A stretch of DNA of 24,698 nucleotides from a virus, in the IMG/VR virus record IMGVR_UViG_3300047562_004594, positions 1-24,698 of that record, one strand, 5' to 3'. Positions 1-20,926 of this stretch are shown here, one piece after another. Both the position numbers and the translations under genes were made by a program. Numbering within the stretch: position 1 is the stretch's first letter; every line of letters starts with the position of its first letter. Below the pieces are notes generated by a model that worked only from the letters and a program-made list of their open reading frames with translations, was not told the DNA's origin and did not search any database.

Positions 1-35
1 TCAAACTTATACGTTTTGTGATATCCGTCGAGCAT
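1..35 (-). CDS. 5' end of a small minus-strand gene (partial)
   Basis: Only the first eleven codons (MLDGYHKTYKF) are inside the window, so no function can be given. The start is supported by a good Shine-Dalgarno (AGAGGAGAAAGAAA just before ATG) and by a TTGACA-N16-TATCCT promoter directly upstream, the same layout as the other small minus-strand genes. The reading frame is open to the window edge. Confidence 0.6.
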   Translation of the reverse strand, partial: MLDGYHKTYKF

Positions 36-58
36 TTTCTTTCTCCTCTGTTTTCCTA

Positions 59-86
59 AGGATACCATATAGATCGGCATTGTCAA
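59..86 (-). promoter_or_regulatory. Sigma-70-type promoter for the gene at 35-1
   Basis: On the minus strand a perfect -35 TTGACA (81-86) and -10 TATCCT (59-64) are separated by 16 nt. The start codon is 24 nt past the -10. It belongs to the cassette-promoter family seen repeatedly up to 6.3 kb. Confidence 0.65.
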
Positions 87-115
87 GCGAAATCTTTAGA
101 AAAATATTTTTTGCT

Positions 116-201
116 CTAAGTCATTGGCGGATAAGGACTTACGACGCGGTGGGCGGCGCGGCCTCGCCCTAAGTGCTTTAGGGACAAGGCTTTACGTCAA
201 C
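116..201. repeat. R1, palindromic intergenic element
   Basis: First of six related elements. It has two inverted-repeat units, TAAGTCATT...AAGGACTTA and TAAGTGCTT...AAGGCTTTA, around a very GC-rich core (about 144-167). It overlaps the end of the 23-codon gene at 197-268 and precedes the promoter for the leftmost gene. On the minus strand CCCTAA...TTAGGG forms an extra small hairpin. It has no sigma-54-like promoter of its own. Role unknown: operator array, structured RNA or terminator are all possible. Confidence 0.75.
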
Positions 202-268
202 TGATGAAGTATGCAAATACCATACCGAAAAAGAATCCGGCACTAATGATCTTTTGTTCACTGGTCAT
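197..268 (-). CDS. Tiny membrane peptide, 23 aa
   Basis: Translation MTSEQKIISAGFFFGMVFAYFIS. After a polar start of about six residues, nearly all the rest is hydrophobic and could form one short transmembrane helix. The start follows a strong Shine-Dalgarno (CACGGAGGACAACCAA then ATG), and the ATG overlaps the end of the preceding 36-aa gene, which indicates translational coupling. It is the last gene of the operon starting at 1093. Function unknown. Very small phage membrane peptides often act on the envelope or on host proteins, but nothing here shows which. The ribosome site and overlap are the main reasons to believe it is translated. Confidence 0.5.
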   Translation of the reverse strand: MTSEQKIISAGFFFGMVFAYFIS

Positions 269-368
269 TTGGTTGTCCTCCGTGAATAACGTCGCACAAA
301 CTCCACGCAAAGATAAACCCGACAACATATCCAATCGTCACACTGATAAAGTCAATCTCAACTGGCAT
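258..368 (-). CDS. Small single-pass membrane protein, 36 aa
   Basis: Translation begins MPVEIDFISVTIGYVVGF and ends in a polar tail HGGQPNDQ. Residues about 7-27 form one hydrophobic stretch, a probable membrane helix. The start is preceded by GGAGGAGG, 6 nt from the ATG, one of the strongest ribosome sites in this region. It overlaps the 65-aa gene upstream by 11 nt and the 23-aa gene downstream by 11 nt, so the three are probably coupled. No family recognised. A holin- or spanin-like role cannot be claimed from one helix. Confidence 0.55.
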   Translation of the reverse strand: MPVEIDFISVTIGYVVGFIFAWSLCDVIHGGQPNDQ

Positions 369-555
369 AGGAAACCTCCTCCATGCTAAATCGTTCCACT
401 TCGCCCACGATACTTTCCAATGCTCCCGATACTGCTACTAGATTTTCGTATCGGTCAACTGCTTCGCTCAGATCAATCGCTGGTACACTCACGACACAAC
501 TATTGTAAGGTGTACCGTCAACTGTTTCGATATTCGTACACTTATAGTATCTCAT
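358..555 (-). CDS. Small hypothetical protein, 65 aa
   Basis: Soluble, acidic protein beginning MRYYKCTNIETVDGTPYNSC with a predicted-helical second half (EAVDRYENLVAVSGALESIV). No known family recognised. The start has a TAGGAATAA ribosome site. It lies 2 nt downstream of the 66-aa gene and overlaps the 36-aa membrane gene by 11 nt, so it is the third gene of the operon transcribed from the promoter at 1128-1155. Function unknown. Confidence 0.65.
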   Translation of the reverse strand: MRYYKCTNIETVDGTPYNSCVVSVPAIDLSEAVDRYENLVAVSGALESIVGEVERFSMEEVSYAS

Positions 556-557
556 TA

Positions 558-758
558 TTAGTTATTCCTAAAGGCGTTGTATTCATCCATAGCATCCTCA
601 AACTCTTGCAGCAGTTCGGGCATATTCATAGCCCAGTGTGCATACAGTTCCGTTTCCGATGGCGTCGGGGCGTATAGTCCCGTTTTTTCCAGGGCGTAAC
701 AATATGCCATATCTTCAAGATTATTTTCAAATCCAGCAACCATAGTATCAAAGTTCAT
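558..758 (-). CDS. Small acidic hypothetical protein, 66 aa
   Basis: Begins MNFDTMVAGFENNLEDMAYC. It is rich in Glu, Asp and Met and predicted mostly helical (PELLQEFEDAMDEYNAF). Its ATG overlaps the TGA stop of the 111-aa gene upstream (TGATG), with GGGGAGG as ribosome site inside that gene's last codons, a classic termination-reinitiation junction. No family recognised. Second gene of the 1093-197 operon. Confidence 0.7.
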   Translation of the reverse strand: MNFDTMVAGFENNLEDMAYCYALEKTGLYAPTPSETELYAHWAMNMPELLQEFEDAMDEYNAFRNN

Positions 759-1093
759 CAGTAGTCCTCCCCATAGTAACCGTAGTCCTCATCTGTTCCC
801 CATCCAGCGTCACGCATGGCACTGTCGAAATCCCCATCCATACTATCATCGTAATCATCGTTCCAAGCATCATCCAACTCATCAGGGTCTAAATCATCAC
901 GGTACTCAGCCGTACCGTCGTGGGCATCACGAATCTCTTGCCAATCCGAATCAATCTCATCCTCACGGTAGAAATCGTTGTAATCGTCGTACAGATACTC
1001 TGCAAACGGAACATCACTCTCGTCCGGCTCAGTGAACATTTCATCGTCCTCGTAGGAGTTCTCAGGATCGTACAGCGGGTCAGGGTGACTCAT
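758..1093 (-). CDS. Highly acidic protein, 111 aa, possible DNA mimic
   Basis: By my count 44 of 111 residues are Asp or Glu, there is no lysine and only four arginines, with many Tyr and Trp spread through the chain (for example DDYNDFYREDEIDSDWQ). No hydrophobic membrane segment or enzyme motif is visible. Such composition is known from DNA-mimic proteins of phages (Ocr, ArdA-type), but charge alone does not prove that role. It is the first gene of a five-gene operon. The start has CCAAGGAGAAAGAAA before ATG, and the promoter TTGACA-N16-TAGATT sits just upstream. Function otherwise unknown. Confidence 0.75.
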   Translation of the reverse strand: MSHPDPLYDPENSYEDDEMFTEPDESDVPFAEYLYDDYNDFYREDEIDSDWQEIRDAHDGTAEYRDDLDPDELDDAWNDDYDDSMDGDFDSAMRDAGWGTDEDYGYYGEDY

Positions 1094-1127
1094 TTTCTTT
1101 CTCCTTGGGGTTACTTTCTATATCGAC

Positions 1128-1155
1128 AATCTACCAGAAAAACTTTAGGTGTCAA
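1128..1155 (-). promoter_or_regulatory. Sigma-70-type promoter for the 1093-197 operon
   Basis: Minus-strand TTGACA (1150-1155), 16-nt spacer, TAGATT (1128-1133). The stop codon of the upstream gene (1152-1154) lies inside the -35 hexamer, so there is no intergenic spacer before the promoter. Confidence 0.7.
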
Positions 1156-1382
1156 GAACAAAAATCGGCTTCGGGATAAACTTCGTCAAAAATGTCTACG
1201 CCCACCACACTAGCCCAGTCGAGGGGGTGGCAATCATTTTCGTCGATGGGCTCAATCGTCGGCTCAACAATGCCAGCGTCAGCCATCTCCGCCAGAATCA
1301 GATTTACATCCTCAAAATCGTACATCTTTTTCTCCTGTCTCATATCACCCAAAAAAGCCATCATACGAGGAAAGTTATTCAT
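1152..1382 (-). CDS. Small acidic hypothetical protein, 76 aa (or 57 aa)
   Basis: From the ATG at 1382 it reads MNNFPRMMAFLGDMRQEKK and continues into an acidic part ending PEADFCS. Two starts are credible. The ATG at 1382 has GGAGGGG eight nt upstream and overlaps the end of the 66-aa gene. The ATG at 1325 (MYDFEDVNL) has an excellent ACAGGAGAAAAAG site. The shorter form lacks the basic N-terminal 19 residues. No family recognised. Second gene of the operon from 1575. Confidence 0.6.
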   Translation of the reverse strand: MNNFPRMMAFLGDMRQEKKMYDFEDVNLILAEMADAGIVEPTIEPIDENDCHPLDWASVVGVDIFDEVYPEADFCS

Positions 1383-1575
1383 TGTCAACCCCTCCTTCGA
1401 GGTATTCTTGATTGTAGAAGATCGCATCTTCGAGCATATGGATACGATCACGGATCACCTTCATTCTAGCATACGGCATACCATCCTTCAACTGATCATC
1501 CAAGTCTATGATCTTCTTGCTGAACCTCAGATTCTGATCCATAATCCGCTTCTTCTCTTCTGCTGAAATCTTCAT
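1375..1575 (-). CDS. Small charged helical protein, 66 aa
   Basis: Begins MKISAEEKKRIMDQNLRFSK. Almost entirely helical, charged and coiled-coil-like (FSKKIIDLDDQLKDG, then IRDRIHMLEDAIFYNQEYLEGG). The frame is open further upstream, but the consensus promoter and the GAAAGAAAGAGGATAG ribosome region lie inside that extension, so the start at 1575 is preferred. It overlaps the next gene by 8 nt. Function unknown. The shape would suit a dimeric binding protein, which is only a guess. Confidence 0.7.
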   Translation of the reverse strand: MKISAEEKKRIMDQNLRFSKKIIDLDDQLKDGMPYARMKVIRDRIHMLEDAIFYNQEYLEGGVDNE

Positions 1576-1600
1576 TCTATCCTCTTTCTTTCTTTCTTTC

Positions 1601-1628
1601 ATTCTACATACTATATCGTCAATGTCAA
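1601..1628 (-). promoter_or_regulatory. Sigma-70-type promoter for the 1575-1152 operon
   Basis: Minus-strand TTGACA (1623-1628), 16-nt spacer, TAGAAT (1601-1606), one of the closest consensus matches in the window. It is followed by a GAAAGAAAGAAAG leader and then the ATG at 1575. Confidence 0.75.
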
Positions 1629-1660
1629 GAAAAAAATCCAGAGAAAATAAAAATTTTTTT

Positions 1661-1674
1661 GGCACAGTATTTGC
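1661..1674 (+). promoter_or_regulatory. Sigma-54-like -24/-12 promoter reading into R2
   Basis: The plus strand reads TTTGGCACAGTATTTGCTAT, with the GG (1661-1662) and GC (1673-1674) exactly ten nt apart as in RpoN promoters (consensus TGGCAC-N5-TTGCW). A start about 12 nt downstream would fall at the first base of R2. The same sequence with one change precedes R5. No coding gene lies downstream on this strand, so any product would be a non-coding or antisense RNA. Confidence 0.5.
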
Positions 1675-1682
1675 TATGCTTC

Positions 1683-1768
1683 CTAAGTCATTGGTATCAA
1701 AGGAGTTACGTCGCGGCCGGCCCGCCTCGCTCGCCGTAAGTCTTTACGCAGCAAGGGTTTACATCACA
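1683..1768. repeat. R2, palindromic intergenic element
   Basis: Two inverted-repeat units (TAAGTCATTG...AAGGAGTTACG and GTAAGTCTTTA...AAGGGTTTAC) flank a GC-rich core near 1714-1735 containing CGGCCGGCCCG. It abuts the stop codon of the nuclease gene at 1769-2323 and sits just downstream of the sigma-54-like site at 1661-1674. Confidence 0.75.
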
Positions 1769-2323
1769 TCAACTATCATTGAGAATTTTTTGGATATTTT
1801 CTTTAGTGATAGTCAAGAATCTTTCCTCTCCCTTCAAAAACCTATGGCCCCTATACCTATTGAAATAAACCGTTTCGCCCCTATCGGTTAGTGTGCCATA
1901 AACATTTATGAATCGTTTAGCAGATTTGCCGCCAATAATAATGCTTGTATAATCATAACCAACCATAACTAATGCTAAAATATCGAAATTGCTGGTTTTG
2001 ATATTGTTGAAACAAAAGTTATCGCTAACTCCACCTTGTGCTGCTGTTTTTACCTCAACATACTTCCACCCATCTCCAATCTTCACCCTAAGATCCGCAT
2101 GGTCATACCCATTCAAAATCTGAACTTTATAACCCAATTTCTCAAACTGTTGCTTTACCAGATATTCCCCTTTGCGTCCCTTCTCCCCACCGGCTGCCAT
2201 GAACTCGATAGACACAGGATCAGAAAACTTACCATTCTGACGCTCGTTTTTCAGATAGTCCTTGTCTGCTTTCTGAAAATCACGCTGAGAAACAAAACCC
2301 GGAATTTTTGTTGCAGTAGTCAT
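1769..2323 (-). CDS. PD-(D/E)XK-superfamily nuclease-like protein, 184 aa
   Basis: Residues about 48-100 fit the PD-(D/E)XK nuclease core: a helix with an acidic residue (GRKGEYLVKQQFEKLGYKV), then DHADLRV with the metal-binding Asp, then WKYVEVKTAAQ holding the E-x-K pair. This fold covers Holliday-junction resolvases, restriction enzymes and repair nucleases, and which one cannot be told from the window. The C-terminal half is basic and aromatic (YFNRYRGHRFLKGEERF), suitable for DNA contact. The ATG follows GGACAAGG. A TTGACA-N16-TAAAAT promoter lies upstream, inside the previous gene's 3' end. Likely to act on host or phage DNA in the cytoplasm. The nuclease call is by motif only. Confidence 0.7.
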   Translation of the reverse strand: MTTATKIPGFVSQRDFQKADKDYLKNERQNGKFSDPVSIEFMAAGGEKGRKGEYLVKQQFEKLGYKVQILNGYDHADLRVKIGDGWKYVEVKTAAQGGVSDNFCFNNIKTSNFDILALVMVGYDYTSIIIGGKSAKRFINVYGTLTDRGETVYFNRYRGHRFLKGEERFLTITKENIQKILNDS

Positions 2324-2358
2324 TACCTTGTCCTTATTGGGTCACTGGTTATGACGCT

Positions 2359-2386
2359 ATTTTATTGCCCAAATTTTATTTGTCAA
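2359..2386 (-). promoter_or_regulatory. Sigma-70-type promoter for the nuclease gene
   Basis: Minus-strand TTGACA (2381-2386), 16 nt, TAAAAT (2359-2364). The -35 box is formed by the last codons (Ile-Asp-Lys) of the upstream 58-aa gene. Confidence 0.7.
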
Positions 2387-2552
2387 TAGGTTTTCTGGAA
2401 AAAATCGTGTCCAAATAAATCTCCCTATCCGTAACAACATACCCATATTCACAAGACGGCGTATACACCCCAAAATACCATTTCCCATCATCATACCCCT
2501 CATACCCAACCCCATATCCTAGCATACCCATCATCATTACGATACTGTACAT
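2376..2552 (-). CDS. Small Gly/Tyr-rich hypothetical protein, 58 aa
   Basis: Begins MYSIVMMMGMLGYGVGYEGY and ends DTIFSRKPIDK. It has a Met/Gly/Tyr-rich first part and a single Cys. Not clearly a membrane protein. The start is well supported by CACGGAGGAAAACAG directly before ATG. The stop overlaps the promoter of the nuclease gene, so the two may be co-transcribed as well. No convincing promoter was found upstream. No family recognised. Confidence 0.6.
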   Translation of the reverse strand: MYSIVMMMGMLGYGVGYEGYDDGKWYFGVYTPSCEYGYVVTDREIYLDTIFSRKPIDK

Positions 2553-2647
2553 CTGTTTTCCTCCGTGAGAATCTTTCTACATATATTATCGGCCAATCCC
2601 CCAGATATCTTTACAAAAATAAAACTTCACCTAAACCCTTATCCTGC

Positions 2648-2716
2648 AACAACTTACGTCAAGTTGGGCGGCGCAATTTTGCCCTAAGTCCTTATATACC
2701 AAGGATTTACGCTGAC
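2648..2716. repeat. R3, partial palindromic intergenic element
   Basis: Keeps the right arm of the first unit (AACAACTTACGTCAA), a core with GGGCGGCGC, and a full second unit (TAAGTCCTTA...AAGGATTTACG). The left arm of the first unit is lost or diverged. It lies between the gene ending at 2774 and the gene starting at 2552, consistent with one R element per operon boundary. Confidence 0.7.
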
Positions 2717-2732
2717 TAGCTGACTCTATCAT

Positions 2733-2780
2733 AAACCGGTAGGTTTAGCCGGTACAACCGTACACCCCTACAATCAGGGG
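2733..2780 (-). repeat. Three-hairpin 3' element, copy 1
   Basis: Read on the minus strand, directly at the 3' end of the gene at 2774-2992: CCCC...GGGG, then GTAC-N4-GTAC, then CCGG...CCGG, three short stems in tandem. The copy at 4289-4336 has the same order and near-identical sequence, also at a gene 3' end and also just before an R element. No U-tract follows, so it is not a standard intrinsic terminator. Confidence 0.6.
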
Positions 2781-2992
2781 AGATTGCGGATCGACTCACG
2801 ATACCTGAACAACAGTTCAGCGGCAGCGTTGCTGATTCCTTCGAGCAGCGTAGCACGAACATTGCCAAACTTGTAGTGGTCAAGTCGATGCTGTGCCTCA
2901 TAGAGCCACTGTTGAATCGTCGTGGTTTGCATAGCCGAAAAGTCTGCTGCATAAAAACTTACACAAAACATATAATCACTCATATCTTTCAT
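2774..2992 (-). CDS. Small hypothetical protein, 72 aa
   Basis: Begins MKDMSDYMFCVSFYAADFSA. The rest is soluble with helical stretches (QWLYEAQHRLDHYKFGNVRATLLEGISNAAAELLFRYRESI). ATG codons at 2992 and 2983 are both preceded by GA-rich leader. The first is chosen because it follows the GAGAGAAAG tract. Promoter TTGACA-N17-TAGACT is just upstream. Its end overlaps the three-hairpin element. No family recognised. Confidence 0.65.
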   Translation of the reverse strand: MKDMSDYMFCVSFYAADFSAMQTTTIQQWLYEAQHRLDHYKFGNVRATLLEGISNAAAELLFRYRESIRNLP

Positions 2993-3017
2993 ATCTTTCT
3001 CTCTTTCTTATACTGGT

Positions 3018-3046
3018 AGTCTATCAGAAAAATTTTGGGTTGTCAA
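3018..3046 (-). promoter_or_regulatory. Sigma-70-type promoter for the gene at 2992-2774
   Basis: Minus-strand TTGACA (3041-3046), 17 nt, TAGACT (3018-3023). The stop codon of the upstream gene (3043-3045) is inside the -35 hexamer. Confidence 0.75.
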
Positions 3047-3240
3047 GCGTTCAATTCTTCGTAAGAGACACGACGTAAAATATTTTTATTCTCATCGATT
3101 TCGTACACAGAACAATCGTACTGGTACAATAATGAGTTTTTGATATTCTTTTCCCAAGTCTCTTTGGCTTCAGAGATTGTATCATAAAGCCTATAGTCTT
3201 GAATGAAACCATCGAACGCTATTACAAACTTATTCATCAT
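3043..3240 (-). CDS. Small hypothetical protein, 65 aa
   Basis: Begins MMNKFVIAFDGFIQDYRLYD and continues with an amphipathic helix (TISEAKETWEKNIKN) and a beta-like end (YDCSVYEIDENKNILRRVSY). A TTG codon at 3252 could extend it by four residues, but the ATG at 3240 has AAAGG four nt upstream and is preferred. It lies 8 nt after the 52-aa gene and is probably co-transcribed with it from the promoter at 3707-3735. No family recognised. Confidence 0.65.
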   Translation of the reverse strand: MMNKFVIAFDGFIQDYRLYDTISEAKETWEKNIKNSLLYQYDCSVYEIDENKNILRRVSYEELNA

Positions 3241-3248
3241 TTTACCTT

Positions 3249-3407
3249 TCAACCAAACATCTCATACTCTTCATCAGTCAATGCTACCTCATCCGGACGA
3301 TAGCAGTTATTACCGTACAACTCACGATTAGTAGGACGCTTTTCCCACTCATCCATGAAACGATTGTACTCTTCAATCATACGCTGTTCTTCACTATCCT
3401 TTTCCAT
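3249..3407 (-). CDS. Small acidic hypothetical protein, 52 aa
   Basis: Begins MEKDSEEQRMIEEYNRFMDE and ends ALTDEEYEMFG. Strongly acidic and helical at the N-terminus, with a central WEKRPTNRELYGNNCYRPDE. The start follows a GAAAGAAAGG-type leader. It sits 23 nt after the 83-aa gene and 8 nt before the 65-aa gene, so it is the middle gene of a three-gene operon. No family recognised. Confidence 0.6.
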   Translation of the reverse strand: MEKDSEEQRMIEEYNRFMDEWEKRPTNRELYGNNCYRPDEVALTDEEYEMFG

Positions 3408-3430
3408 CTTTCAATCTACCTTTCTTTCAC

Positions 3431-3682
3431 TCAGACTATCACAGGAAACATGCTCTTGACCAACTCACCCTCATACGGATGTTCACGATGATACTTCATC
3501 CACAACTCATCGACTACAAACTGAGCCGCACGTTGACGCGACCCACGAAAAACGTAGTAGTTTGCTTTGATATCAAACAACTTGATTGTACCATCCGTTT
3601 GGGGGTGGTAAGTGAAACCGGCAATGTAGGCATACCGATTGATGCTTTTCAGAATCGTGCTAGTCTTAGGAGGCTTTCTCAT
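3431..3682 (-). CDS. Small basic hypothetical protein, 83 aa
   Basis: Begins MRKPPKTSTILKSINRYAYI. A mixed beta part (YIAGFTYHPQTDGTIKLFDI) is followed by a basic helix (RGSRQRAAQFVVDELWMKYH). Basic N-terminus and arginines suggest nucleic-acid or protein contact, but no family is recognised. The ATG follows GAAAGAGAGAAAGAAAA. Promoter TTGACA-N17-TAGAGT lies immediately after the stop of the 65-aa gene upstream. Confidence 0.65.
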   Translation of the reverse strand: MRKPPKTSTILKSINRYAYIAGFTYHPQTDGTIKLFDIKANYYVFRGSRQRAAQFVVDELWMKYHREHPYEGELVKSMFPVIV

Positions 3683-3706
3683 TTTTCTTTCTCTCTTTCT
3701 TCCTTT

Positions 3707-3735
3707 ACTCTACCAAACTTTTCCCGCCGTGTCAA
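3707..3735 (-). promoter_or_regulatory. Sigma-70-type promoter for the 3682-3043 operon
   Basis: Minus-strand TTGACA (3730-3735), 17 nt, TAGAGT (3707-3712). Five nt separate it from the upstream stop codon, and a short CCCC...GGGG hairpin spans that junction. Confidence 0.7.
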
Positions 3736-3740
3736 TCCCC

Positions 3741-3938
3741 TCAATCGGGGGTGACCGGTCCCGGTGATCGGTAGACTATGTGACCACACTTGTTAGCGTA
3801 GACTGAACGATACCCTACCGCTTCATCGTTGATGAGCAACAGAATACCCTTACCCGGAATGTTCCGAATATTCTCAACCGGACCTTCGAAAATCTCACCG
3901 GTTGCATAGACCACATTGACGATATCACCAATCTTCAT
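3741..3938 (-). CDS. Small beta-barrel-like protein, 65 aa
   Basis: Begins MKIGDIVNVVYATGEIFEGP. The pattern (GDIVNVVY...GEIFEGPVENI...GKGILLLI...GHIVY) looks like a small SH3/KOW-like beta-barrel, which would suit RNA, DNA or protein binding, but this is inferred from the pattern only. It is the first gene after the best sigma-54-like promoter (3971-3984), about 33 nt from it, and the ATG follows GAAAGAGAGAGTGAAAG. Its stop lies 5 nt before the next promoter. Confidence 0.65.
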   Translation of the reverse strand: MKIGDIVNVVYATGEIFEGPVENIRNIPGKGILLLINDEAVGYRSVYANKCGHIVYRSPGPVTPD

Positions 3939-3970
3939 CTTTCACTCTCTCTTTCTTACCTCTATATAAT

Positions 3971-3984
3971 GCAATCGCCGTGCC
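3971..3984 (-). promoter_or_regulatory. Sigma-54-like -24/-12 promoter (module R4)
   Basis: Minus strand TTTGGCACGGCGATTGCA matches the RpoN consensus (TGGCACG-N4-TTGCA) at every informative position: GG at 3984-3983, GC at 3972-3971, ten nt apart. The predicted start near 3959 leaves about 20 nt of GA-rich leader to the ATG at 3938. Three dyads lie 74-151 nt upstream, where activator sites of sigma-54 promoters are usually found. An AT-rich TATATAG follows, so an extended -10 sigma-70 promoter is the alternative. Confidence 0.6.
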
Positions 3985-4057
3985 AAACCGAAAAATATTT
4001 TTTGTGCGATTTTTACGGGAAAAACGCTGTGCTATTTTTTGTGCCTAGTTTTTGAGC

Positions 4058-4135
4058 GTAGCAAAACGCTACAGCAGTGTAGCAAAACGCTACGCATAAC
4101 TCAGCCTAAAACAGCAAAGTGTAGCAAAATGCACT
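4058..4135. repeat. Three 15-bp dyads (enhancer-like sites), module R4
   Basis: GTAGCAAAACGCTAC at 4058-4072 and again at 4079-4093, and GTAGCAAAATGCACT at 4121-4135. The unit is an inverted repeat GTAGC-N5-GCTAC. Related sets occur at 5312-5378 and 6603-6669, always between the sigma-54-like promoter and the R element. Expected to bind a dimeric regulator, possibly a sigma-54 activator. No such activator gene is in the window. Confidence 0.7.
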
Positions 4136-4182
4136 ACCCCATATATAGTGTGCCTAAAAATCAGGCACCACAAGACACTCGT

Positions 4183-4265
4183 CGTAAGTCGTTGATACCA
4201 AAGGAGTTACGTCAAATTTGCGGCCGCAAAATCGTCGTAAGTCCTTACGTAGCAAGGGTTTACGG
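4183..4265. repeat. R4, palindromic intergenic element
   Basis: Cleanest R copy: GTAAGTCGTTG...AAGGAGTTACGTCA, a perfect 14-bp palindrome TTTGCGGCCGCAAA in the centre, then CGTAAGTCCTTACG...AAGGGTTTACG. It sits downstream of the gene ending at 4344 and upstream of the dyads and leftward promoter. Unlike R2, R5 and R6 it has no rightward sigma-54-like site before it. Together with 3971-4135 it fills the 405-nt gap between genes. Confidence 0.8.
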
Positions 4266-4288
4266 CTCGCTGGCTGTCATCATATGTC

Positions 4289-4336
4289 AACCGGCTGGTT
4301 CAGCCGGTACAAATGTACACCCCCACCACAGAGGGG
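4289..4336 (-). repeat. Three-hairpin 3' element, copy 2
   Basis: Minus-strand order: CCCC...GGGG, GTACATTTGTAC, ACCGGCTGAACCAGCCGGT. Near-identical to 2733-2780 and in the same place: gene end on one side, R element on the other. The third stem is the strongest (seven pairs). No U-tract follows. Confidence 0.65.
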
Positions 4337-4343
4337 TCGAGTA

Positions 4344-4655
4344 TCAATCCCCCATAAAGGGGGACATCTCGTTTTCGGACAGGCTGGCATATTGCATAGC
4401 CAACGCTTCCACCCTTTCGCGAGAACCGGGCTTGCCAACCTTGAACCGCATACGATCCTCACCCCCCACAAGGCGGGGGTCAGCTTTTTCTAGTGTACGC
4501 TTGGCCAGTGTACGCATAGCCTTGCGATTGAACTTCAATACCTTCTCACTGCGAATCGTACCACCATCGGCGGTAGTCTTGTCGCACGGAATAGCGATAC
4601 CACTGAAGCACAGGAACGCTTGACGCTTTGCATTTTCGATGATTTCAAACTTCAT
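4344..4655 (-). CDS. Small basic hypothetical protein, 103 aa
   Basis: Begins MKFEIIENAKRQAFLCFSGI. It is rich in Lys and Arg in the middle (RSEKVLKFNRKAMRTLAKRTLEK) and ends SENEMSPFMGD. No family recognised. The basic helix could contact nucleic acid. The frame is open upstream to 4739, but the start at 4655 is chosen because the cassette promoter (4687-4714) and the GAAAGAGAGAAAGAAA leader precede it. It is followed by the three-hairpin element and R4, so it is probably the last gene of its unit. Confidence 0.7.
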   Translation of the reverse strand: MKFEIIENAKRQAFLCFSGIAIPCDKTTADGGTIRSEKVLKFNRKAMRTLAKRTLEKADPRLVGGEDRMRFKVGKPGSRERVEALAMQYASLSENEMSPFMGD

Positions 4656-4686
4656 TTTCTTTCTCTCTTTCTTTCGTGTTGAGTGT

Positions 4687-4714
4687 AGTCTACCAAAAAA
4701 ACTTTTCTTGTCAA
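4687..4714 (-). promoter_or_regulatory. Sigma-70-type promoter for the 103-aa gene
   Basis: Minus-strand TTGACA (4709-4714), 16 nt, TAGACT (4687-4692), five nt after the upstream stop codon. A CCCC...GGGG hairpin spans the stop. Confidence 0.75.
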
Positions 4715-4719
4715 TCCCC

Positions 4720-4893
4720 TCAGTTGGGGGATACTGCATATTCCTCAGTCAACACTTCGCAGTGTTCACGACAATCGGGGCAGATTTCGTAGCAGATATG
4801 CTCATCGCTCATATATGCTCCGCAACAATCGCTCATATACAGAACGTTCATTTCGTAATCGGCGTAATCGGGACGGGGATCGGGGCAACTCAT
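4720..4893 (-). CDS. Cys-rich zinc-binding-like small protein, 57 aa
   Basis: Begins MSCPDPRPDYADYEMNVLYM. Residues 23-45 read CCGAYMSDEHICYEICPDC then REHC, so cysteines fall at 23, 24, 34, 38, 41 and 45 with His at 32 and 44. This spacing fits a compact treble-clef or knuckle zinc site of a kind common in small phage proteins. No enzyme motif is present. The ATG follows GAGAGAGAGAAAAA, with promoter TTGACG-N16-TAGACT upstream. It may bind nucleic acid or protein; which one is not visible. Confidence 0.7.
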   Translation of the reverse strand: MSCPDPRPDYADYEMNVLYMSDCCGAYMSDEHICYEICPDCREHCEVLTEEYAVSPN

Positions 4894-4922
4894 TTTTCTC
4901 TCTCTCTTTCTTTCTTTCTTTC

Positions 4923-4950
4923 AGTCTAGCAAAAAATCCCGCCGCGTCAA
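4923..4950 (-). promoter_or_regulatory. Sigma-70-type promoter for the Cys-rich gene
   Basis: Minus-strand TTGACG (4945-4950), 16 nt, TAGACT (4923-4928), six nt after the upstream TAG stop. The only cassette promoter with a one-base change in the -35. Confidence 0.65.
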
Positions 4951-4956
4951 GCCCCA

Positions 4957-5181
4957 CTATCGGGGGGCACCCAAACGCCATTCGTGAAACTTCAACGTGA
5001 ACGCTTGTCCAGGGTACTTGCTAGCGATATACGCCTCGGCCGTAGCCTTGCGGTTATCCTTAGCGGAAACACCCTGTACGATCACACCGTCGATGATCAC
5101 ATGCCAGATTCGACGGCTGCGAATCCGGGGAAGGCTACCGATGAAATCGTTGACTGAAGTGGACTTTTGGATACCGTACAT
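4957..5181 (-). CDS. Small basic hypothetical protein, 74 aa
   Basis: Begins MYGIQKSTSVNDFIGSLPRI. A core WHVIIDGVIVQGVSAKDNRK is followed by a helix (ATAEAYIASKYPGQ) and a final beta-like strand. The layout (Trp-x-Ile strand, Gly-turn strand, helix ending in Tyr-Pro) resembles the gene at 6286-6483, which holds the same position after a sigma-54-like promoter. They may be distant paralogues, though identity is low. The ATG at 5181 follows a GAAAGAAAGAGAG leader. No family recognised. Confidence 0.65.
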   Translation of the reverse strand: MYGIQKSTSVNDFIGSLPRIRSRRIWHVIIDGVIVQGVSAKDNRKATAEAYIASKYPGQAFTLKFHEWRLGAPR

Positions 5182-5231
5182 TTGAAACTCTCTTTCTTTC
5201 TAAAACTCTCTTTTTCTACCTACTATATAAT

Positions 5232-5245
5232 GCACACCCCGTGCC
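5232..5245 (-). promoter_or_regulatory. Sigma-54-like -24/-12 promoter (module R5)
   Basis: Minus strand TTTGGCACGGGGTGTGCA: GG (5245-5244) and GC (5233-5232) are ten nt apart with the full TGGCACG -24 block. The predicted start near 5220 is about 40 nt before the ATG at 5181. The flanks (AAAATTTTTT upstream, TTATATAG downstream) match the copies at 3971 and 6523. Confidence 0.58.
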
Positions 5246-5311
5246 AAAGCCAAAAAATTTTTTGAGCCTAGAAAACAAGGCATTTTTGAGTGTTACCCCC
5301 CATTGGTAGGT

Positions 5312-5378
5312 GAAGCATTTTGCTACAGTTTTTGCATTTTGCAACCTATATATAGACGCTTTTGTAGCATTTTGCAAC
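5312..5378. repeat. Three 15-bp dyads (enhancer-like sites), module R5
   Basis: GAAGCATTTTGCTAC (5312-5326), TTTGCATTTTGCAAC (5331-5345) and GTAGCATTTTGCAAC (5364-5378). They lie between two divergent sigma-54-like promoters, 67-133 nt from the left one and 33-99 nt from the right one. A further dyad AACCAC...GTGGTT follows at 5384-5403. Confidence 0.72.
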
Positions 5379-5410
5379 AGTGTAACCACTACATCTTGTG
5401 GTTCGCTTTT

Positions 5411-5424
5411 GGCACAGCATTTGC
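5411..5424 (+). promoter_or_regulatory. Sigma-54-like -24/-12 promoter reading into R5
   Basis: Plus strand TTTTGGCACAGCATTTGCTA: GG at 5411-5412, GC at 5423-5424, ten nt apart. The predicted start near 5436 lies a few nt before R5. One base differs from the site before R2 across GG to GC. No plus-strand gene follows, so the product would be a non-coding or antisense RNA. Confidence 0.5.
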
Positions 5425-5440
5425 TATCCGAGCACATTAG

Positions 5441-5526
5441 CTGTAACTCCTTATGTAGCAAGCACTTACGTCAAATTTGCGGGCGAATTTTTGTCGTAAC
5501 TCCTTATGCCACAAGGGTTTACGTCA
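5441..5526. repeat. R5, palindromic intergenic element
   Basis: Units GTAACTCCTTA...AAGCACTTACGTCA and CGTAACTCCTTATG...AAGGGTTTACGTCA flank the core AAATTTGCGGGCGAATTT, which is a dyad allowing one G-U pair. It lies just past the 3' end of the 49-aa gene. With the dyads and two sigma-54-like sites it fills the 350-nt gap between genes. Confidence 0.8.
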
Positions 5527-5531
5527 ATCTT

Positions 5532-5681
5532 TCAGAGAATCGTACCATCCCCCCTAATGCGGTAGTATATGCCACCGATACTGTACAAACTTATACCCTC
5601 GCCCATATGCTGTACAAATGTAGCACTGTACCCGTGTCGAGCAACTAGGCGGCGAACGGTATTCTGTACTTGAATCGTCAT
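5532..5681 (-). CDS. Small basic hypothetical protein, 49 aa
   Basis: Begins MTIQVQNTVRRLVARHGYSA and ends YYRIRGDGTIL. A basic N-terminal helix is followed by beta-like segments. Its ATG overlaps the TGA stop of the 71-aa gene (TGATG), and GGGAG seven nt upstream acts as ribosome site inside that gene, so the pair is translationally coupled. It ends six nt before R5. No family recognised. Confidence 0.6.
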   Translation of the reverse strand: MTIQVQNTVRRLVARHGYSATFVQHMGEGISLYSIGGIYYRIRGDGTIL

Positions 5682-5896
5682 CACGAAACTCCCATGTAGT
5701 CTGCATTTTCGCAGCAGTAATCGTAAAACATATCGTTCAACACTTCTTCATAGTTTGAATCGGTCAACCTACGATGAGCAAGGGTAGATTCGCACTCAGC
5801 GAAAAACTTACCAGTTGAAACTTCGTAAACAATCGTACAGGCCGAAGCCTCATAACCCCAAATCTGAGCCTTAGCATTCACAAACTTCTTCAACAT
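5681..5896 (-). CDS. Small hypothetical protein, 71 aa
   Basis: Begins MLKKFVNAKAQIWGYEASAC. Four cysteines (C20, C34 and the pair in FYDYCCENADYMGVS) are too scattered for a clear zinc site. No family recognised. The ATG follows GAGAAAGAAAG, with promoter TTGACA-N16-TAGAAT directly upstream. It is the first gene of a two-gene unit ending at R5. Confidence 0.65.
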   Translation of the reverse strand: MLKKFVNAKAQIWGYEASACTIVYEVSTGKFFAECESTLAHRRLTDSNYEEVLNDMFYDYCCENADYMGVS

Positions 5897-5922
5897 CTTT
5901 CTTTCTCTCTTTCTTTCTATCT

Positions 5923-5950
5923 ATTCTACAAACTTTTTTCTGTCTGTCAA
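5923..5950 (-). promoter_or_regulatory. Sigma-70-type promoter for the 5896-5532 operon
   Basis: Minus-strand TTGACA (5945-5950), 16 nt, TAGAAT (5923-5928), six nt after the stop codon of the 80-aa gene. Confidence 0.75.
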
Positions 5951-5956
5951 TACTGA

Positions 5957-6199
5957 TCAGTAGTACAGAAAGTCTCGCACCACGTTTCCGTCGCGGTCAA
6001 CCTCGATATACTCACCCTCATCACCACACGGGAAAAAATACTCGATATATCCGGTAACGTCGTTGGCAATGTCGCTGGCAAGAGCCTCATCGAGCAACTC
6101 ACCGCCGATACTGGCAACTCCAACCAACGTATCGGGCGAAGTACTATTCGCACCATACAGGAACTCAACCAACTCGTCTCGGGTGTTTACGGTTATCAT
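5957..6199 (-). CDS. Small acidic hypothetical protein, 80 aa
   Basis: Begins MITVNTRDELVEFLYGANST, with a helical middle (GGELLDEALASDIANDV) and an acidic beta-like end (EGEYIEVDRDGNVVRDFLYY). No family recognised. The ATG follows GAGGAAACC. Almost the whole leader between the -10 box and the ribosome site is eight GAAA repeats, so its translation or transcription could change with repeat number. Confidence 0.68.
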   Translation of the reverse strand: MITVNTRDELVEFLYGANSTSPDTLVGVASIGGELLDEALASDIANDVTGYIEYFFPCGDEGEYIEVDRDGNVVRDFLYY

Positions 6200-6206
6200 G
6201 GTTTCC

Positions 6207-6240
<34 letters not shown>

Positions 6241-6268
6241 AGTCTAGCAAAAAAACTTTGTCTGTCAA
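6241..6268 (-). promoter_or_regulatory. Sigma-70-type promoter for the 80-aa gene
   Basis: Minus-strand TTGACA (6263-6268), 16 nt, TAGACT (6241-6246), 17 nt after the upstream stop codon, with a CCC...GGG hairpin in between. Confidence 0.75.
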
Positions 6269-6285
6269 TCCCCCCTATCGGGCGA

Positions 6286-6483
6286 TCAGTCTTCCGACAT
6301 GATCTTCACGATGCTGATTTCGGTAGCGTCAGGATATTGACGCTGAACGCGAAGTTGAGCATCGACCCACGAGCGATAGCGGGTATCGAGTTTTCCGGTG
6401 TACACTTGGCCACCGCTCACGAAACTGATTTCCCAACCGAGAAAAACTTGAGCATGGCGACGATAGGTGTTTGAAGTTTTCAT
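6286..6483 (-). CDS. Small basic hypothetical protein, 65 aa
   Basis: Begins MKTSNTYRRHAQVFLGWEIS. Core FVSGGQVYTGKLDTRYRSW, a helix (VDAQLRVQRQYPDA) and a final strand. Its layout resembles the 74-aa gene at 4957-5181. The start at 6483 is chosen over the longer open frame because GAGGAAAGAAA precedes it and the sigma-54-like promoter's predicted start (about 6511) lies inside the extension. No family recognised. Confidence 0.65.
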   Translation of the reverse strand: MKTSNTYRRHAQVFLGWEISFVSGGQVYTGKLDTRYRSWVDAQLRVQRQYPDATEISIVKIMSED

Positions 6484-6522
6484 TTTCTTTCCTCTTTTCT
6501 TTCTTTCTTGCCATATATAAAT

Positions 6523-6536
6523 GCACATACCGTGCC
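6523..6536 (-). promoter_or_regulatory. Sigma-54-like -24/-12 promoter (module R6)
   Basis: Minus strand TTTGGCACGGTATGTGCA: GG (6536-6535) and GC (6524-6523) are ten nt apart. The predicted start near 6511 gives a GA-rich leader of about 28 nt to the ATG at 6483. Flanks match the copies at 3971 and 5232. Confidence 0.58.
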
Positions 6537-6602
6537 AAACCGGAAAATATTTTTGAGTCTATAAAAATAGGGTTTTTCGTATCATACCCCCCGTTAGTAG
6601 GC

Positions 6603-6669
6603 GTAGCATTTTGCAACACTTTTTGCATTTTGCAACCTACATATAGGCGATTTTGTAGCATTTTGCTAC
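6603..6669. repeat. Three 15-bp dyads (enhancer-like sites), module R6
   Basis: GTAGCATTTTGCAAC (6603-6617), TTTGCATTTTGCAAC (6622-6636) and the perfect inverted repeat GTAGCATTTTGCTAC (6655-6669). Spacings (19 and 33 nt) equal those of module R5. The dyad ACCAC...GTGGT follows at 6676-6693. Confidence 0.75.
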
Positions 6670-6701
6670 AGTCAAACCACTATATATTGTGGTCGGCGAA
6701 T

Positions 6702-6715
6702 GGCATACGGTTTGC
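6702..6715 (+). promoter_or_regulatory. Sigma-54-like -24/-12 promoter reading into R6
   Basis: Plus strand AATGGCATACGGTTTGCTAG: GG at 6702-6703, GC at 6714-6715, ten nt apart. It is weaker than the R2 and R5 sites in the -24 block. The predicted start near 6727 is a few nt before R6. A run of seven T after GAGGGG at 6834-6840 might end a transcript of about 110 nt, though no good stem precedes it. Confidence 0.45.
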
Positions 6716-6729
6716 TAGTGAAAACTGAA

Positions 6730-6806
6730 CGTAAGTCGTTGTCAGTAAAGGAGTTACGTCAAATTTTCGCCTGCATTTTTTACATAACTCCTTATATATC
6801 AACATC
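6730..6806. repeat. R6, palindromic intergenic element
   Basis: First unit GTAAGTCGTTG...AAGGAGTTACGTCA is intact. The second unit (ATAACTCCTTATA...AACATCTTATATCA) has drifted. The right arm of unit one and left arm of unit two (AAGGAGTTACGT and ACATAACTCCTT) are complementary at 11 of 12 positions, so a long alternative stem is possible. Confidence 0.75.
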
Positions 6807-6981
6807 TTATATCAACACCATACCATAGAGGGGTTTTTTTGTTTTCAAAGGATATTGAGATTGCGTCTCAAAAACCGGCCGGGGTTTACACACAGTATGG
6901 ACCCATATAAGTATATGTATTACCTAAACTATTAAGTTAGGCCATCATAGTTTGTTTCGTGTTGCTAAGAACCGAGGCCCT
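6807..6981. other. Non-coding gap between R6 and the minus-strand terminator
   Basis: No supported gene on either strand. It holds a T7 run (6834-6840), a five-pair hairpin TGAGA...TCTCA (6856-6870) and the palindrome CCGGCCGG (6875-6882). No tRNA or clear promoter was seen. Confidence 0.6.
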
Positions 6982-7020
6982 ATAAACAAAAAGGCCGCCG
7001 GAATTACCCAGCAGCCTTTT
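6982..7020 (-). terminator. Intrinsic terminator of the 7565-7050 operon
   Basis: On the minus strand a 12-pair stem AAAGGCTGCTGG...CCGGCGGCCTTT (two G-U pairs, six-nt loop) is followed by TTTTTGTTT. The wobbles pair only on the minus-strand RNA, which fixes the direction. It lies 30 nt past the stop codon of the exported protein gene. Confidence 0.85.
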
Positions 7021-7322: not shown

Positions 7323-7565
7323 TTATGACAACAACATCGAACTAGGGTTTTGTTCATTTGTAGTAGTAATACTCTGATTCTTTCGAGGTCTGCCCCTTGG
7401 CTTCTTTAGTGCCAACTTGCGTCGCTGTCTTCGAACCATAGCTGTAGTAATCTTTTCTCCTGTCATATTACTTAATTTATCGGCCAAAACCTCATCACAC
7501 AAAATATTATGATTGTTCTGGATAAATTCAGCTTCTGCACTTGACCATTTTTTATAATTTGCCAT
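7323..7565 (-). CDS. HTH DNA-binding protein with AT-hook tail, 80 aa
   Basis: Begins MANYKKWSSAEAEFIQNNHN. Residues about 5-50 look like a short helix-turn-helix (EAEFIQNNHNILCDEVLADK, then TTAMVRRQRRKLALKK). Residues about 55-60 are KPRGRPRK, a textbook AT-hook core (GRP) for minor-groove binding. The N-terminal pattern resembles that of the small-terminase-like protein at 8446. The start at 7565 is chosen over upstream codons because AGGAAAACAATT precedes it and the chain starts at the conserved part. It is divergent to the late block, with 83 nt between the start codons, a good place for a regulator of that switch. Confidence 0.7.
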   Translation of the reverse strand: MANYKKWSSAEAEFIQNNHNILCDEVLADKLSNMTGEKITTAMVRRQRRKLALKKPRGRPRKNQSITTTNEQNPSSMLLS

Positions 7566-7648: not shown

Positions 7649-7834
7649 ATGACTAATTTCAATAATTTTCGCCCTGTCGATTCTGTGCTTGTCGTAAAGT
7701 CTTCAGGAGTAGATACTAGTGTAGCCAACGATCTTTCTATGCCCCAAGGAAAAAGTATAGCTGAATTATTATATGAAGAAACCAACCAAAACCAAGAAAG
7801 CAATACGCCCCAAGAAGAAAAAGAAGCAGAATAG
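7649..7834 (+). CDS. Small hypothetical protein, 61 aa
   Basis: Begins MTNFNNFRPVDSVLVVKSSG and ends in an acidic, Gln/Glu-rich disordered tail (NQNQESNTPQEEKEAE). The start is strong (AAGGAGAATAA before ATG). Its last 62 nt overlap the start of the sigma-factor gene in the +1 frame, so it may serve as a leader for it. No family recognised. Confidence 0.65.
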   Translation: MTNFNNFRPVDSVLVVKSSGVDTSVANDLSMPQGKSIAELLYEETNQNQESNTPQEEKEAE

Positions 7835-8456
7835 CGAGCTACCAAACGGAGTTTCCGAAGAAGAATTCCTCATTGTTTTAGAAAATATTAGCAAAAGACT
7901 TGGCCATAAATTTAAATTTGGATATCACTCTTATGAGGACATGAAACAACAAGCAGCTATTTTTGCTTTAGAGGGCTTAGAAAAGTACGATAATACCAGA
8001 CCATTAGAAAATTTCTTATGGACCCACGTACGTAATCGCCTTTTTAATTACAAACGAGACAATTACCAACGCCCCGATAAACCATGTTTAACATGCCCAC
8101 TATACGACCCCCACTGCAAAAAGTCCTCTAGTCAATGTTTGGAATTTACAGACAAAAGTGAGTGCGAAGAATATTCTTCTTGGAGTAATCGTAACAACAA
8201 CAAAAAGAATATTATGAAACCTATTGGCATGGAAGAAGTTAAAGATGCTTCGGCCAGTATATCTTTTGATGATAATATCTTGTCTAGTTTAGCCGACCAA
8301 CAAATAATAGACATTTTAGATAAGGAAATCCCTGCACAATATAGAGAAACCTATCTTAAATTAAAGTACGGTGACAAGGTTTACAAAACAGACCTTAATA
8401 AATTATGCTCAATTATAACAGAGATATTACAAAAACACAACTATTATGAATCGTAA
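7773..8456 (+). CDS. Phage RNA polymerase sigma-like factor, 227 aa
   Basis: Residues about 52-98 (YHSYEDMKQQAAIFALEGLE, then KYDNTRPLENFLWTHVRNRL) match sigma region 2: core-polymerase binding and -10 recognition, as in T4 gp55-type late factors. A Cys-rich insert follows (C111, C114, C120, C127, C135), possibly a zinc site. The C-terminal third (IIDILDKEIPAQYRETYLKLKYGDKV) is like a degenerate region 4. The N-terminus is very Lys-rich. Expected to direct host RNA polymerase to phage promoters, probably for the structural genes. The start overlaps the 61-aa gene by 62 nt and has no close Shine-Dalgarno, so translation probably depends on coupling or a frameshift. It overlaps the next gene by 11 nt. 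Confidence 0.75.
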   Translation: MKKPTKTKKAIRPKKKKKQNSELPNGVSEEEFLIVLENISKRLGHKFKFGYHSYEDMKQQAAIFALEGLEKYDNTRPLENFLWTHVRNRLFNYKRDNYQRPDKPCLTCPLYDPHCKKSSSQCLEFTDKSECEEYSSWSNRNNNKKNIMKPIGMEEVKDASASISFDDNILSSLADQQIIDILDKEIPAQYRETYLKLKYGDKVYKTDLNKLCSIITEILQKHNYYES

Positions 8457-20781: not shown

Positions 20782-20854
20782 GCTTATGTTACTAAACTAC
20801 ACAACTCAACTTCAGTCGCATTCGCATTATTTGTTTATAGGGCGCACCACCTCA

Positions 20855-20882
20855 TTAACAACTGAAAGGGATAATATATAAT
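20855..20882 (+). promoter_or_regulatory. Sigma-70-type promoter before the second fibre gene
   Basis: TTAACA (20855-20860), 16 nt, TATAAT (20877-20882), in the 145-nt gap between fibre genes and 44 nt before the ATG at 20927. It would allow the fibre genes to be expressed apart from the upstream block. Confidence 0.6.
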
Positions 20883-20926
20883 CTATTAGTAAGTTTTGAA
20901 GCAAGCCCCTTAAGCAAAGATATACA

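What the first reader, a model, noticed from the sequence alone, without database searches (positions are those of the whole stretch)
116..6806. Six copies of a two-unit palindromic element, one per operon boundary
R1-R6 share a plan: inverted repeat GTAAGTCNTT/AANGANTTAC, a centre that is GC-rich or palindromic in most copies (TTTGCGGCCGCAAA in R4), then a second inverted repeat GTAAGTCCTT/AAGGGTTTAC. Arms from different units can also pair with each other, so an RNA could switch between two small hairpins and one long one. All six lie at ends of minus-strand transcription units. The DNA view is four half-sites for a repressor (comparable to phage stoperators); the RNA view is a put-like or terminator-like structure.
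Basis: partly seen in the sequence, partly recalled or inferred. Interest (0 to 1): 0.75.

Follow-up and report, generated by a model that had tools for sequence, protein, structure and literature searches.

The report
Paired DNA sites upstream of phage promoters
Six copies of a 90-base DNA element in a large uncultivated phage belong to a widespread family that sits at a fixed helical distance upstream of the promoters of one gene block, and relatives carry the same element with a completely different recognition sequence in the same places.

Summary
In detail: six copies, each with two 27-bp dyads starting exactly 53 bp apart; shuffled windows give none. The RNA reading fails: neither pairing scheme covaries and RNAalifold predicts no pair. 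These are DNA sites. 653 distinct copies were collected from uncultivated phages, confined to one block beside the terminase gene. In 314 of 523 copies a sigma-70 promoter points away on one side, never both, mostly 19, 29-30, 40 or 63 bp from the -35 box, that is, in helical phase. In the window only R1 and R2 show this.

Unexpectedly, close relatives carry a different dyad (CTGCCATTTTGGCAG, pitch 29) around a similar GC-rich core, beside the same genes. The two types alternate at least five times on a terminase tree. Best reading: an upstream promoter-control element with an exchangeable recognition code, activation somewhat likelier than repression. The binding protein was not found; integrase, CI-type repressor and ParA families had no match over cut-off.

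The parts
116..195 (.). R1: dyads 116-142 and 169-195, GC-rich core GGGCGGCGCGGCC between
   Evidence: similarity extends about 7 bp either side in relatives
1683..1762 (.). R2: dyads 1683-1709 and 1736-1762, core GCGGCCGGCCCGCC
2631..2710 (.). R3: dyads 2631-2657 and 2684-2710, core GGGCGGCGC
4184..4263 (.). R4: dyads 4184-4210 and 4237-4263, core TTTGCGGCCGCAAA
5443..5522 (.). R5: dyads 5443-5469 and 5496-5522, core TTTGCGGGCGAATTT
6731..6810 (.). R6: dyads 6731-6757 and 6784-6810 (second dyad weakest, 14 of 20), core weak
59..86 (-). Sigma-70-type promoter of the operon to the left of R1 (TTGACA-16-TATCCT); 29 bp between R1 and the -35 box
1601..1628 (-). Sigma-70-type promoter next to R2 (TTGACA-16-TAGAAT); 54 bp between R2 and the -35 box
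1659..1674 (+). C box TTGGCACAGTATTTGC, sigma-54-like, between R2 and its promoter, pointing at R2
   Evidence: role unknown
5409..5424 (+). C box TTGGCACAGCATTTGC next to R5, pointing at R5
   Evidence: role unknown
6701..6717 (+). Variant C box TGGCATACGGTTTGCTA next to R6
   Evidence: read; not matched by the exact pattern
3971..3986 (-). C box TTGGCACGGCGATTGC on the other strand, about 30 nt before the start codon of gene 3741-3938

Best explanation
Each R is a double-stranded DNA control element of the promoter beside it. Shown by sequence: two conserved dyads on a fixed pitch flank a GC-rich core, and the nearer dyad typically sits a whole number of helical turns upstream of the -35 box of one sigma-70-type promoter, across an A/T-tract. 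Inferred: a dimeric sequence-specific protein binds the two dyads on one face of the helix (53 bp is about five turns) and acts on RNA polymerase from upstream, most likely as an upstream activating site, so that the small operons of this block are controlled together. Also shown: the recognition sequence can be replaced at all detected elements of a block (A type to B type) while place and phase are kept. A promoter-control element of either sign I hold at about 0.75; activation specifically at 0.42.
For: Half-sites and pitch are conserved: 563 of 653 distinct elements have pitch 53; in the 89 elements from the terminase-selected loci, where the pitch was not imposed, 71 have 53, 10 have 52 and 4 have 54. 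Dependence between positions is almost only between neighbours, as in a protein-DNA site. Promoters pointing away from R: in 314 of 523 elements, on one side only (139 right, 175 left, 0 both), against 23 promoters pointing toward R. Distances peak at 19, 29-30, 40 and 63 bp (Rayleigh p about 5e-42 at 10.5 bp; about 3e-25 after thinning to 159 distances). All but one of the listed -35 boxes lie 16 bp or more from R, so R practically never overlaps the promoter, which fits an upstream activator better than steric repression. B-type elements show the same geometry: 215 of 268 with pitch 29, a promoter on one side only in 178 of 268, distance peak 23-25. Dyad centres then lie about 32 bp from the -35 box in B and about 32.5, 43 and 53.5 bp in A (my arithmetic).
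Against: 209 of 523 A elements and 90 of 268 B elements have no promoter by the strict rule within 110 bp. In the window only R1 and R2 do; R3-R6 do not, and 8 of the 10 minus-strand promoters with a perfect TTGACA in window 1-7000 have no R beside them. The promoters already match consensus closely, so they should not need an activator. Concerted change of a binding code is more typical of repressor-immunity systems. No binding protein was identified. Timing of expression is unknown.
Confidence: 0.42

Rival explanations
1. Operators of a block-wide repressor (immunity- or superinfection-type control), acting from upstream by looping or by holding polymerase. The A and B types would be different specificity groups.
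For: Same placement and phasing. The dyad sequence is swapped at all detected elements of a block between relatives, and types alternate at least five times on the TerL tree, as expected if specificity is under diversifying selection. Analogues: stoperators (PMC6550527) and SPBRE (PMC10516654).
Against: The elements do not overlap the promoter core. No Phage_integrase (0 of 21 over cut-off), serine Recombinase (0 of 13), HTH_3 repressor (0 of 13) or ParA-like protein (0 of 13) was found, so no ordinary lysogeny module is seen.
Confidence: 0.3
2. Insulator or roadblock: protein bound at R stops read-through from the upstream operon into the next.
For: R lies at the 3' end of one operon and at the start of the next, often within 0-15 bp of the upstream stop codon. 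No ordinary terminator is found at R.
Against: Does not explain helical phasing with the downstream promoter.
Confidence: 0.1
3. RNA element (hairpin switch, put-like antiterminator, processing site).
For: The arms can pair; R4 and R6 fold better than all 200 of their shuffles (z -3.3 each).
Against: No covariation in either structure; at several arm positions complementary pairing is below independence (z to about -5); RNAalifold 0 pairs; the six copies fold differently and R2 no better than chance; Rfam none.
Confidence: 0.03
4. Recombination sites (attC-like or Xer-like), making the block a cassette array.
For: Inverted arms around a 7-nt spacer resemble a recombinase core site (recalled); units of about 1 kb lie between elements.
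Against: Phage_integrase 0 of 21 over cut-off, serine Recombinase 0 of 13; spacers differ between elements of one genome; gene order is largely kept between A and B genomes; the model does not predict promoter phasing.
Confidence: 0.04
5. Sites for replication, partition or packaging that happen to lie in the gaps.
For: Many copies in one block beside the terminase gene.
Against: One promoter on one side only and in helical phase; no ParA-like protein.
Confidence: 0.05

Closest known systems
SPBRE elements of Bacillus phage SPbeta, bound by MrpR (PMC10516654, abstract and passages seen)
   Same: A repeated phage DNA motif in the promoter regions of about ten phage genes, recognised by one phage protein and so forming a regulon.
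   Different: SPBRE is a 15-bp motif in a temperate phage. Here two dyads flank a GC core over about 90 bp, in phages without detected integrase, and the regulator is unknown.
Stoperators of cluster A mycobacteriophages (PMC6550527, passages seen)
   Same: 20-30 sites per genome; site consensus differs between relatives together with repressor specificity.
   Different: Stoperators are 13-bp asymmetric sites, mostly not promoter-associated, that block elongation; their motifs form a spectrum. Here the sites are dyads, promoter-phased, and two unrelated sequences are exchanged.
Upstream region of E. coli rrn P1 promoters (UP element plus phased Fis sites; recalled)
   Same: Strong sigma-70 promoter, A/T-tract just upstream, then phased dyad sites further upstream.
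   Different: Fis sites are degenerate and bend DNA; here the sites are specific, paired at fixed pitch and flank a GC core.
Phage class I activator sites (phi29 p4, P2 Ogr; recalled)
   Same: Dyad sites upstream of -50 that act on RNA polymerase.
   Different: Those serve one or a few promoters; here a dozen or more in one block.

Membership tests
Stoperators (cluster A mycobacteriophage type) | Many copies per phage genome of one site, mostly one orientation to transcription | tested here: met
   15-23 A elements in each of four A genomes; promoter on one side only
Stoperators (cluster A mycobacteriophage type) | Short asymmetric 13-bp site | tested here: not met
   Two 27-bp dyads at pitch 53
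Stoperators (cluster A mycobacteriophage type) | Mostly not promoter-associated; block elongation | tested here: not met
   314 of 523 have a promoter beside them; the elongation block itself is not testable here
Stoperators (cluster A mycobacteriophage type) | Immunity repressor and prophage-maintenance genes | tested here: inconclusive
   Integrase, serine recombinase, HTH_3 and ParA families: none over cut-off; other folds not excluded
SPBRE/MrpR type operators | Motif in the promoter regions of several phage operons | tested here: met
   for the family; 2 of 6 in the window
SPBRE/MrpR type operators | Bound by a protein of tyrosine-recombinase fold | tested here: inconclusive
   PF00589 0 of 21 over cut-off, one weak hit in G006; a diverged fold would be missed
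put-type or other structured RNA | Conserved RNA structure supported by covariation | tested here: not met
Intrinsic terminator | GC-rich stem-loop followed by a T run | tested here: not met
   Eight terminator-like sites in window 1-7000, none at an R
Integron attC / Xer site | Cognate recombinase in the genome | tested here: not met
   PF00589 0 of 21 over cut-off
Sigma-54 promoter (for the C boxes) | GG and GC ten bases apart in TGGCAC-N5-TTGC | tested here: met
Sigma-54 promoter (for the C boxes) | Drives a gene just downstream; activator present | tested here: inconclusive
   Most C boxes run into an R with no gene; Sigma54_activat 0 of 13 phage records, a host activator is possible

The most novel reading that the evidence does not exclude
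The block is a set of regulatory sockets: promoter, A/T-tract and GC core stay in place, while the DNA-recognition modules around the core (A, B, perhaps the C-box dyad) are exchanged at all 14-18 elements of a block, repeatedly and sometimes through hybrid elements. This would be regulon-wide rewiring of a viral operator code under selection to escape, or to match, a DNA-binding protein of a rival phage, a satellite or the host.
Probability: 0.35. Interest if true: 0.8.

Novelty: new variant of a known kind. Interest (0 to 1): 0.62.

Why it matters
How a regulator and all of its binding sites change together is an old question with few natural series to study. Here dozens of related phages keep the same genes and the same control geometry but carry one of two unrelated recognition sequences, with apparent hybrids, so the path between them could be reconstructed. 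The elements also give a handle on gene control in large uncultivated phages: a defined DNA bait for finding the protein, and a signature for recognising the gene block in metagenomes.

Tried and rejected
Covariance-model work (R-scape style) was replaced by direct pair counts, because the RNA signal was absent. Search for the binding protein: gene content of four A and three B genomes and identity contrasts gave no DNA-binding protein that follows the type. One marked contrast, a 232-aa protein (93% within A, 75% A to B), looks by eye like a helix-hairpin-helix DNA glycosylase (recalled motif), not a regulator. The small AT-hook protein beside the block (window 7323-7565, minus) does not follow the type (nearest neighbour same type 28 of 46). 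Block genes were tested the same way: several follow the type strongly (47 of 51 for a 102-aa family), none looks to me like a DNA-binding protein, and one-sided families were mostly spurious reading frames or small unknowns. Host: a genome-contig scan gave three metagenome-assembled contigs of unrelated phyla, and A-type units in those assemblies lie mostly on a few contigs, so mis-binning is likely and the host stays unknown. Cultured phages: no DNA match to an A-type consensus; the one plasmid match covers 24 nt at E 0.7; TerL about 26% identity in the best-covered hits and capsid 22.5% to phage G. Literature searches listed no description of these elements; that holds only for those terms in that library.

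My first thought, that C boxes are sigma-54 promoters making R the start of an RNA, was dropped as a main reading: they occur at a minority of elements, form face-to-face pairs, mostly lead into R or a hairpin rather than a gene, and no activator was found.
Full report
What is there. The window is a 24,698-bp fragment of an uncultivated phage with terminase, portal and tail-fibre-like genes on the plus strand and a block of small minus-strand genes at 1-6800. The six elements lie in that block. Each is two dyads of 27 bp (10-nt arm, 7-nt spacer, inverted arm) whose starts are exactly 53 bp apart in 6 of 6. Shuffling the window 60 times with dinucleotides kept gave no element.

A family of elements. 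A terminase search returned 80 loci, not selected for the element. In the terminase set 43 of 80 loci had dyads, and dyads lay 53 bp apart in 67 cases, 52 in 7 and 54 in 4. Together there are 653 distinct elements, 563 with pitch 53; from the terminase loci alone 89 elements, 71 with pitch 53. One relative (L199) uses 52 at the elements read. The logo of 486 elements is conserved from about -7 to +85: TTGAC-GTAARYCCTT-N7-AAGGACTTAC-GNCAA, a core like GGGCGGGCC, then the same dyad again.

Where they lie. Of 21 records searched, all had pattern matches, but in G011 they were at the level of the reversed control. In the three records whose listing is complete enough to judge, nearly all matches fall in one stretch (about 93-106 kb in G013, 57.8-75.4 kb in G004, 28.6-43.5 kb in G019). 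Four A genomes have 15-23 elements, in one block in three of them and reaching both record ends in G007, beside TerL.

Not RNA. On 241 thinned elements no arm pairing shows the pattern of a conserved stem, and complementary pairing at arm positions 4-6 is below independence (z -3.4 to -4.8 within unit 1). Against this, one outer arm position (0 with 26, z 4.3) and one inner cross pair (21 with 58, z 4.9) were above independence, and the GC core shows dyad correlation (z about 4). On an 80-sequence alignment (80 of the elements held, window copies included) the covariation score was reached by 306 of 500 shuffles for two small hairpins and 497 of 500 for one long hairpin, and RNAalifold found no pair. 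Folding the six copies gives different structures; R4 and R6 fold better than all of their 200 shuffles, R2 does not. Rfam has no match.

Upstream of promoters, in phase. Among 523 elements with enough flank, a promoter TTGACA-16/18-TAnnnT (one mismatch allowed in the -35, two in all) pointing away occurs on the right in 139, on the left in 175, on both in 0, on neither in 209. Promoters pointing toward R number 23. Random positions have 0.06 promoters per test window. The distance from R to the -35 box peaks at 19 (18 cases), 29-30 (102), 40 (22) and 63 (11). After thinning, 159 distances still show phasing (p about 3e-25 at 10.5 bp; the fit is slightly better at 11-11.5). Related copies are not independent, so these p values are only a guide. 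Between R and the -35 box lies an A-tract then a T-tract. In the window R1 has its promoter at 29 bp and R2 at 54 bp with a C box between; R3-R6 have none by this rule. In G010 likewise the elements nearest TerL lack one, so the window shows the less typical end of the block.

A second code in the same sockets. L161 and L166 have no A elements but repeats CTGCCATTTTGGCAG - GC-rich 14 bp - CTGCCATTTTGGCAG. A scan found 73 stretches. Of 268 distinct B elements 215 have pitch 29; a promoter points away on one side in 178, on both in 0, with distances peaking at 23-25 bp. Four A genomes have 15-23 A elements and 0, 0, 1 and 0 B dyads; three B genomes have 0 A elements and 18-40 B dyads. Orthologous block genes of G010 (A) and of G011 and G022 (B), at 27-86% amino-acid identity, often have the element at nearly the same distance: 5' of the gene 101 and 99 (101 in G022), 80 and 76 (75), 237 and 232 (232), 55 and 48 (48), and 70 and 66 in G022; 3' of the gene 13 and 13, 2 and 1. 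Some rows differ or lack an element on one side (same call). In nucleotide comparisons, L011 (A) and L259 (B) share a segment of 372 nt at 82.5% identity that lies by A elements in one and B elements in the other, and L042 and L259 share 5.7 kb at 80%. On a TerL tree of 24 A and 11 B rows the types need at least 5 changes, also counting only well-supported branches; L086 is a long branch there, and TerL may have a history other than the block. Apparent hybrids (an A dyad, GC core, then a B dyad or a C-box pair) are seen in L178 and L179; six of 354 loci scored as mixed by a simple rule, 122 as A, 62 as B and 164 as undecided. One of the six is a piece of the B genome G011 with two single A-like units.

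How it probably works. Conserved half-sites, a fixed pitch of five turns, phasing to one promoter and absence of covariation point to a protein bound to duplex DNA that acts on polymerase from upstream. Lack of overlap with the promoter core favours activation; exchange of the code and strong promoters favour repression. The sign is not decided by sequence. The binding protein is unknown: no type-following DNA-binding protein was found, and no ordinary lysogeny genes. A host protein remains possible; A and B phages would then be expected to have different hosts, but hosts are unknown. That the block holds early genes is an inference from promoter type and small gene size; it was not tested.

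Comparison. SPBRE (PMC10516654, passages) is the closest in layout, stoperators (PMC6550527, passages) the closest in evolution of specificity; rrn P1 upstream regions, phi29 p4 and P2 Ogr are recalled. The elements meet some and fail other defining features of each, so they are not filed under any. Searches of the paper library listed no account of them.

Noticed in passing
window 1659-1674, 5409-5424, 6701-6717 (+); 3971-3986 (-): Sigma-54-like C boxes (TTGGCAY-N5-TTGC) occur almost only in the element block of these phages, mostly near its terminase end and pointing at an R; none in the reversed-pattern control. They also form face-to-face pairs in relatives.
   Followed up: partly
window 4058-4072, 4079-4093, 6655-6669: Palindromes GTAGC-N5-GCTAC, with near copies at 5364 and 6603, lie in the long gaps beside R4-R6; two of those gaps share a 198-nt repeat (5229-5426 and 6520-6717, 79%). 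Nearly absent from the seven large relatives.
   Followed up: partly
window 3730-3751, 4709-4730, 4945-4966, 6263-6284: Short C-run/G-run hairpins stand directly before several minus-strand TTGACA boxes, between gene end and next promoter (family D12).
   Followed up: no
window 7323-7565 (-): Small protein with an AT-hook match (E 0.0012) and a nearly invariant RRQRRK motif, found in most relatives of both types beside the block.
   Followed up: partly
window 7773-8456 (+): Weak sigma-70 region 2 match beside the block (Pfam E 0.0012, below cut-off; PHROG sigma factor E 7e-5); conserved in relatives.
   Followed up: no
L178, L179, L142 (upstream of TerL): Elements with one A dyad and a GC core whose other side is a B dyad, a C-box pair or a C-rich/G-rich hairpin.
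   Followed up: partly
G011 42739 and G022 8565: C boxes followed within about 10 bases by a CCCC...GGGG hairpin and a T run, like a terminator at the expected start site.
   Followed up: no
window 19030-22828: Tail-fibre-like genes with several diverged internal repeats.
   Followed up: no
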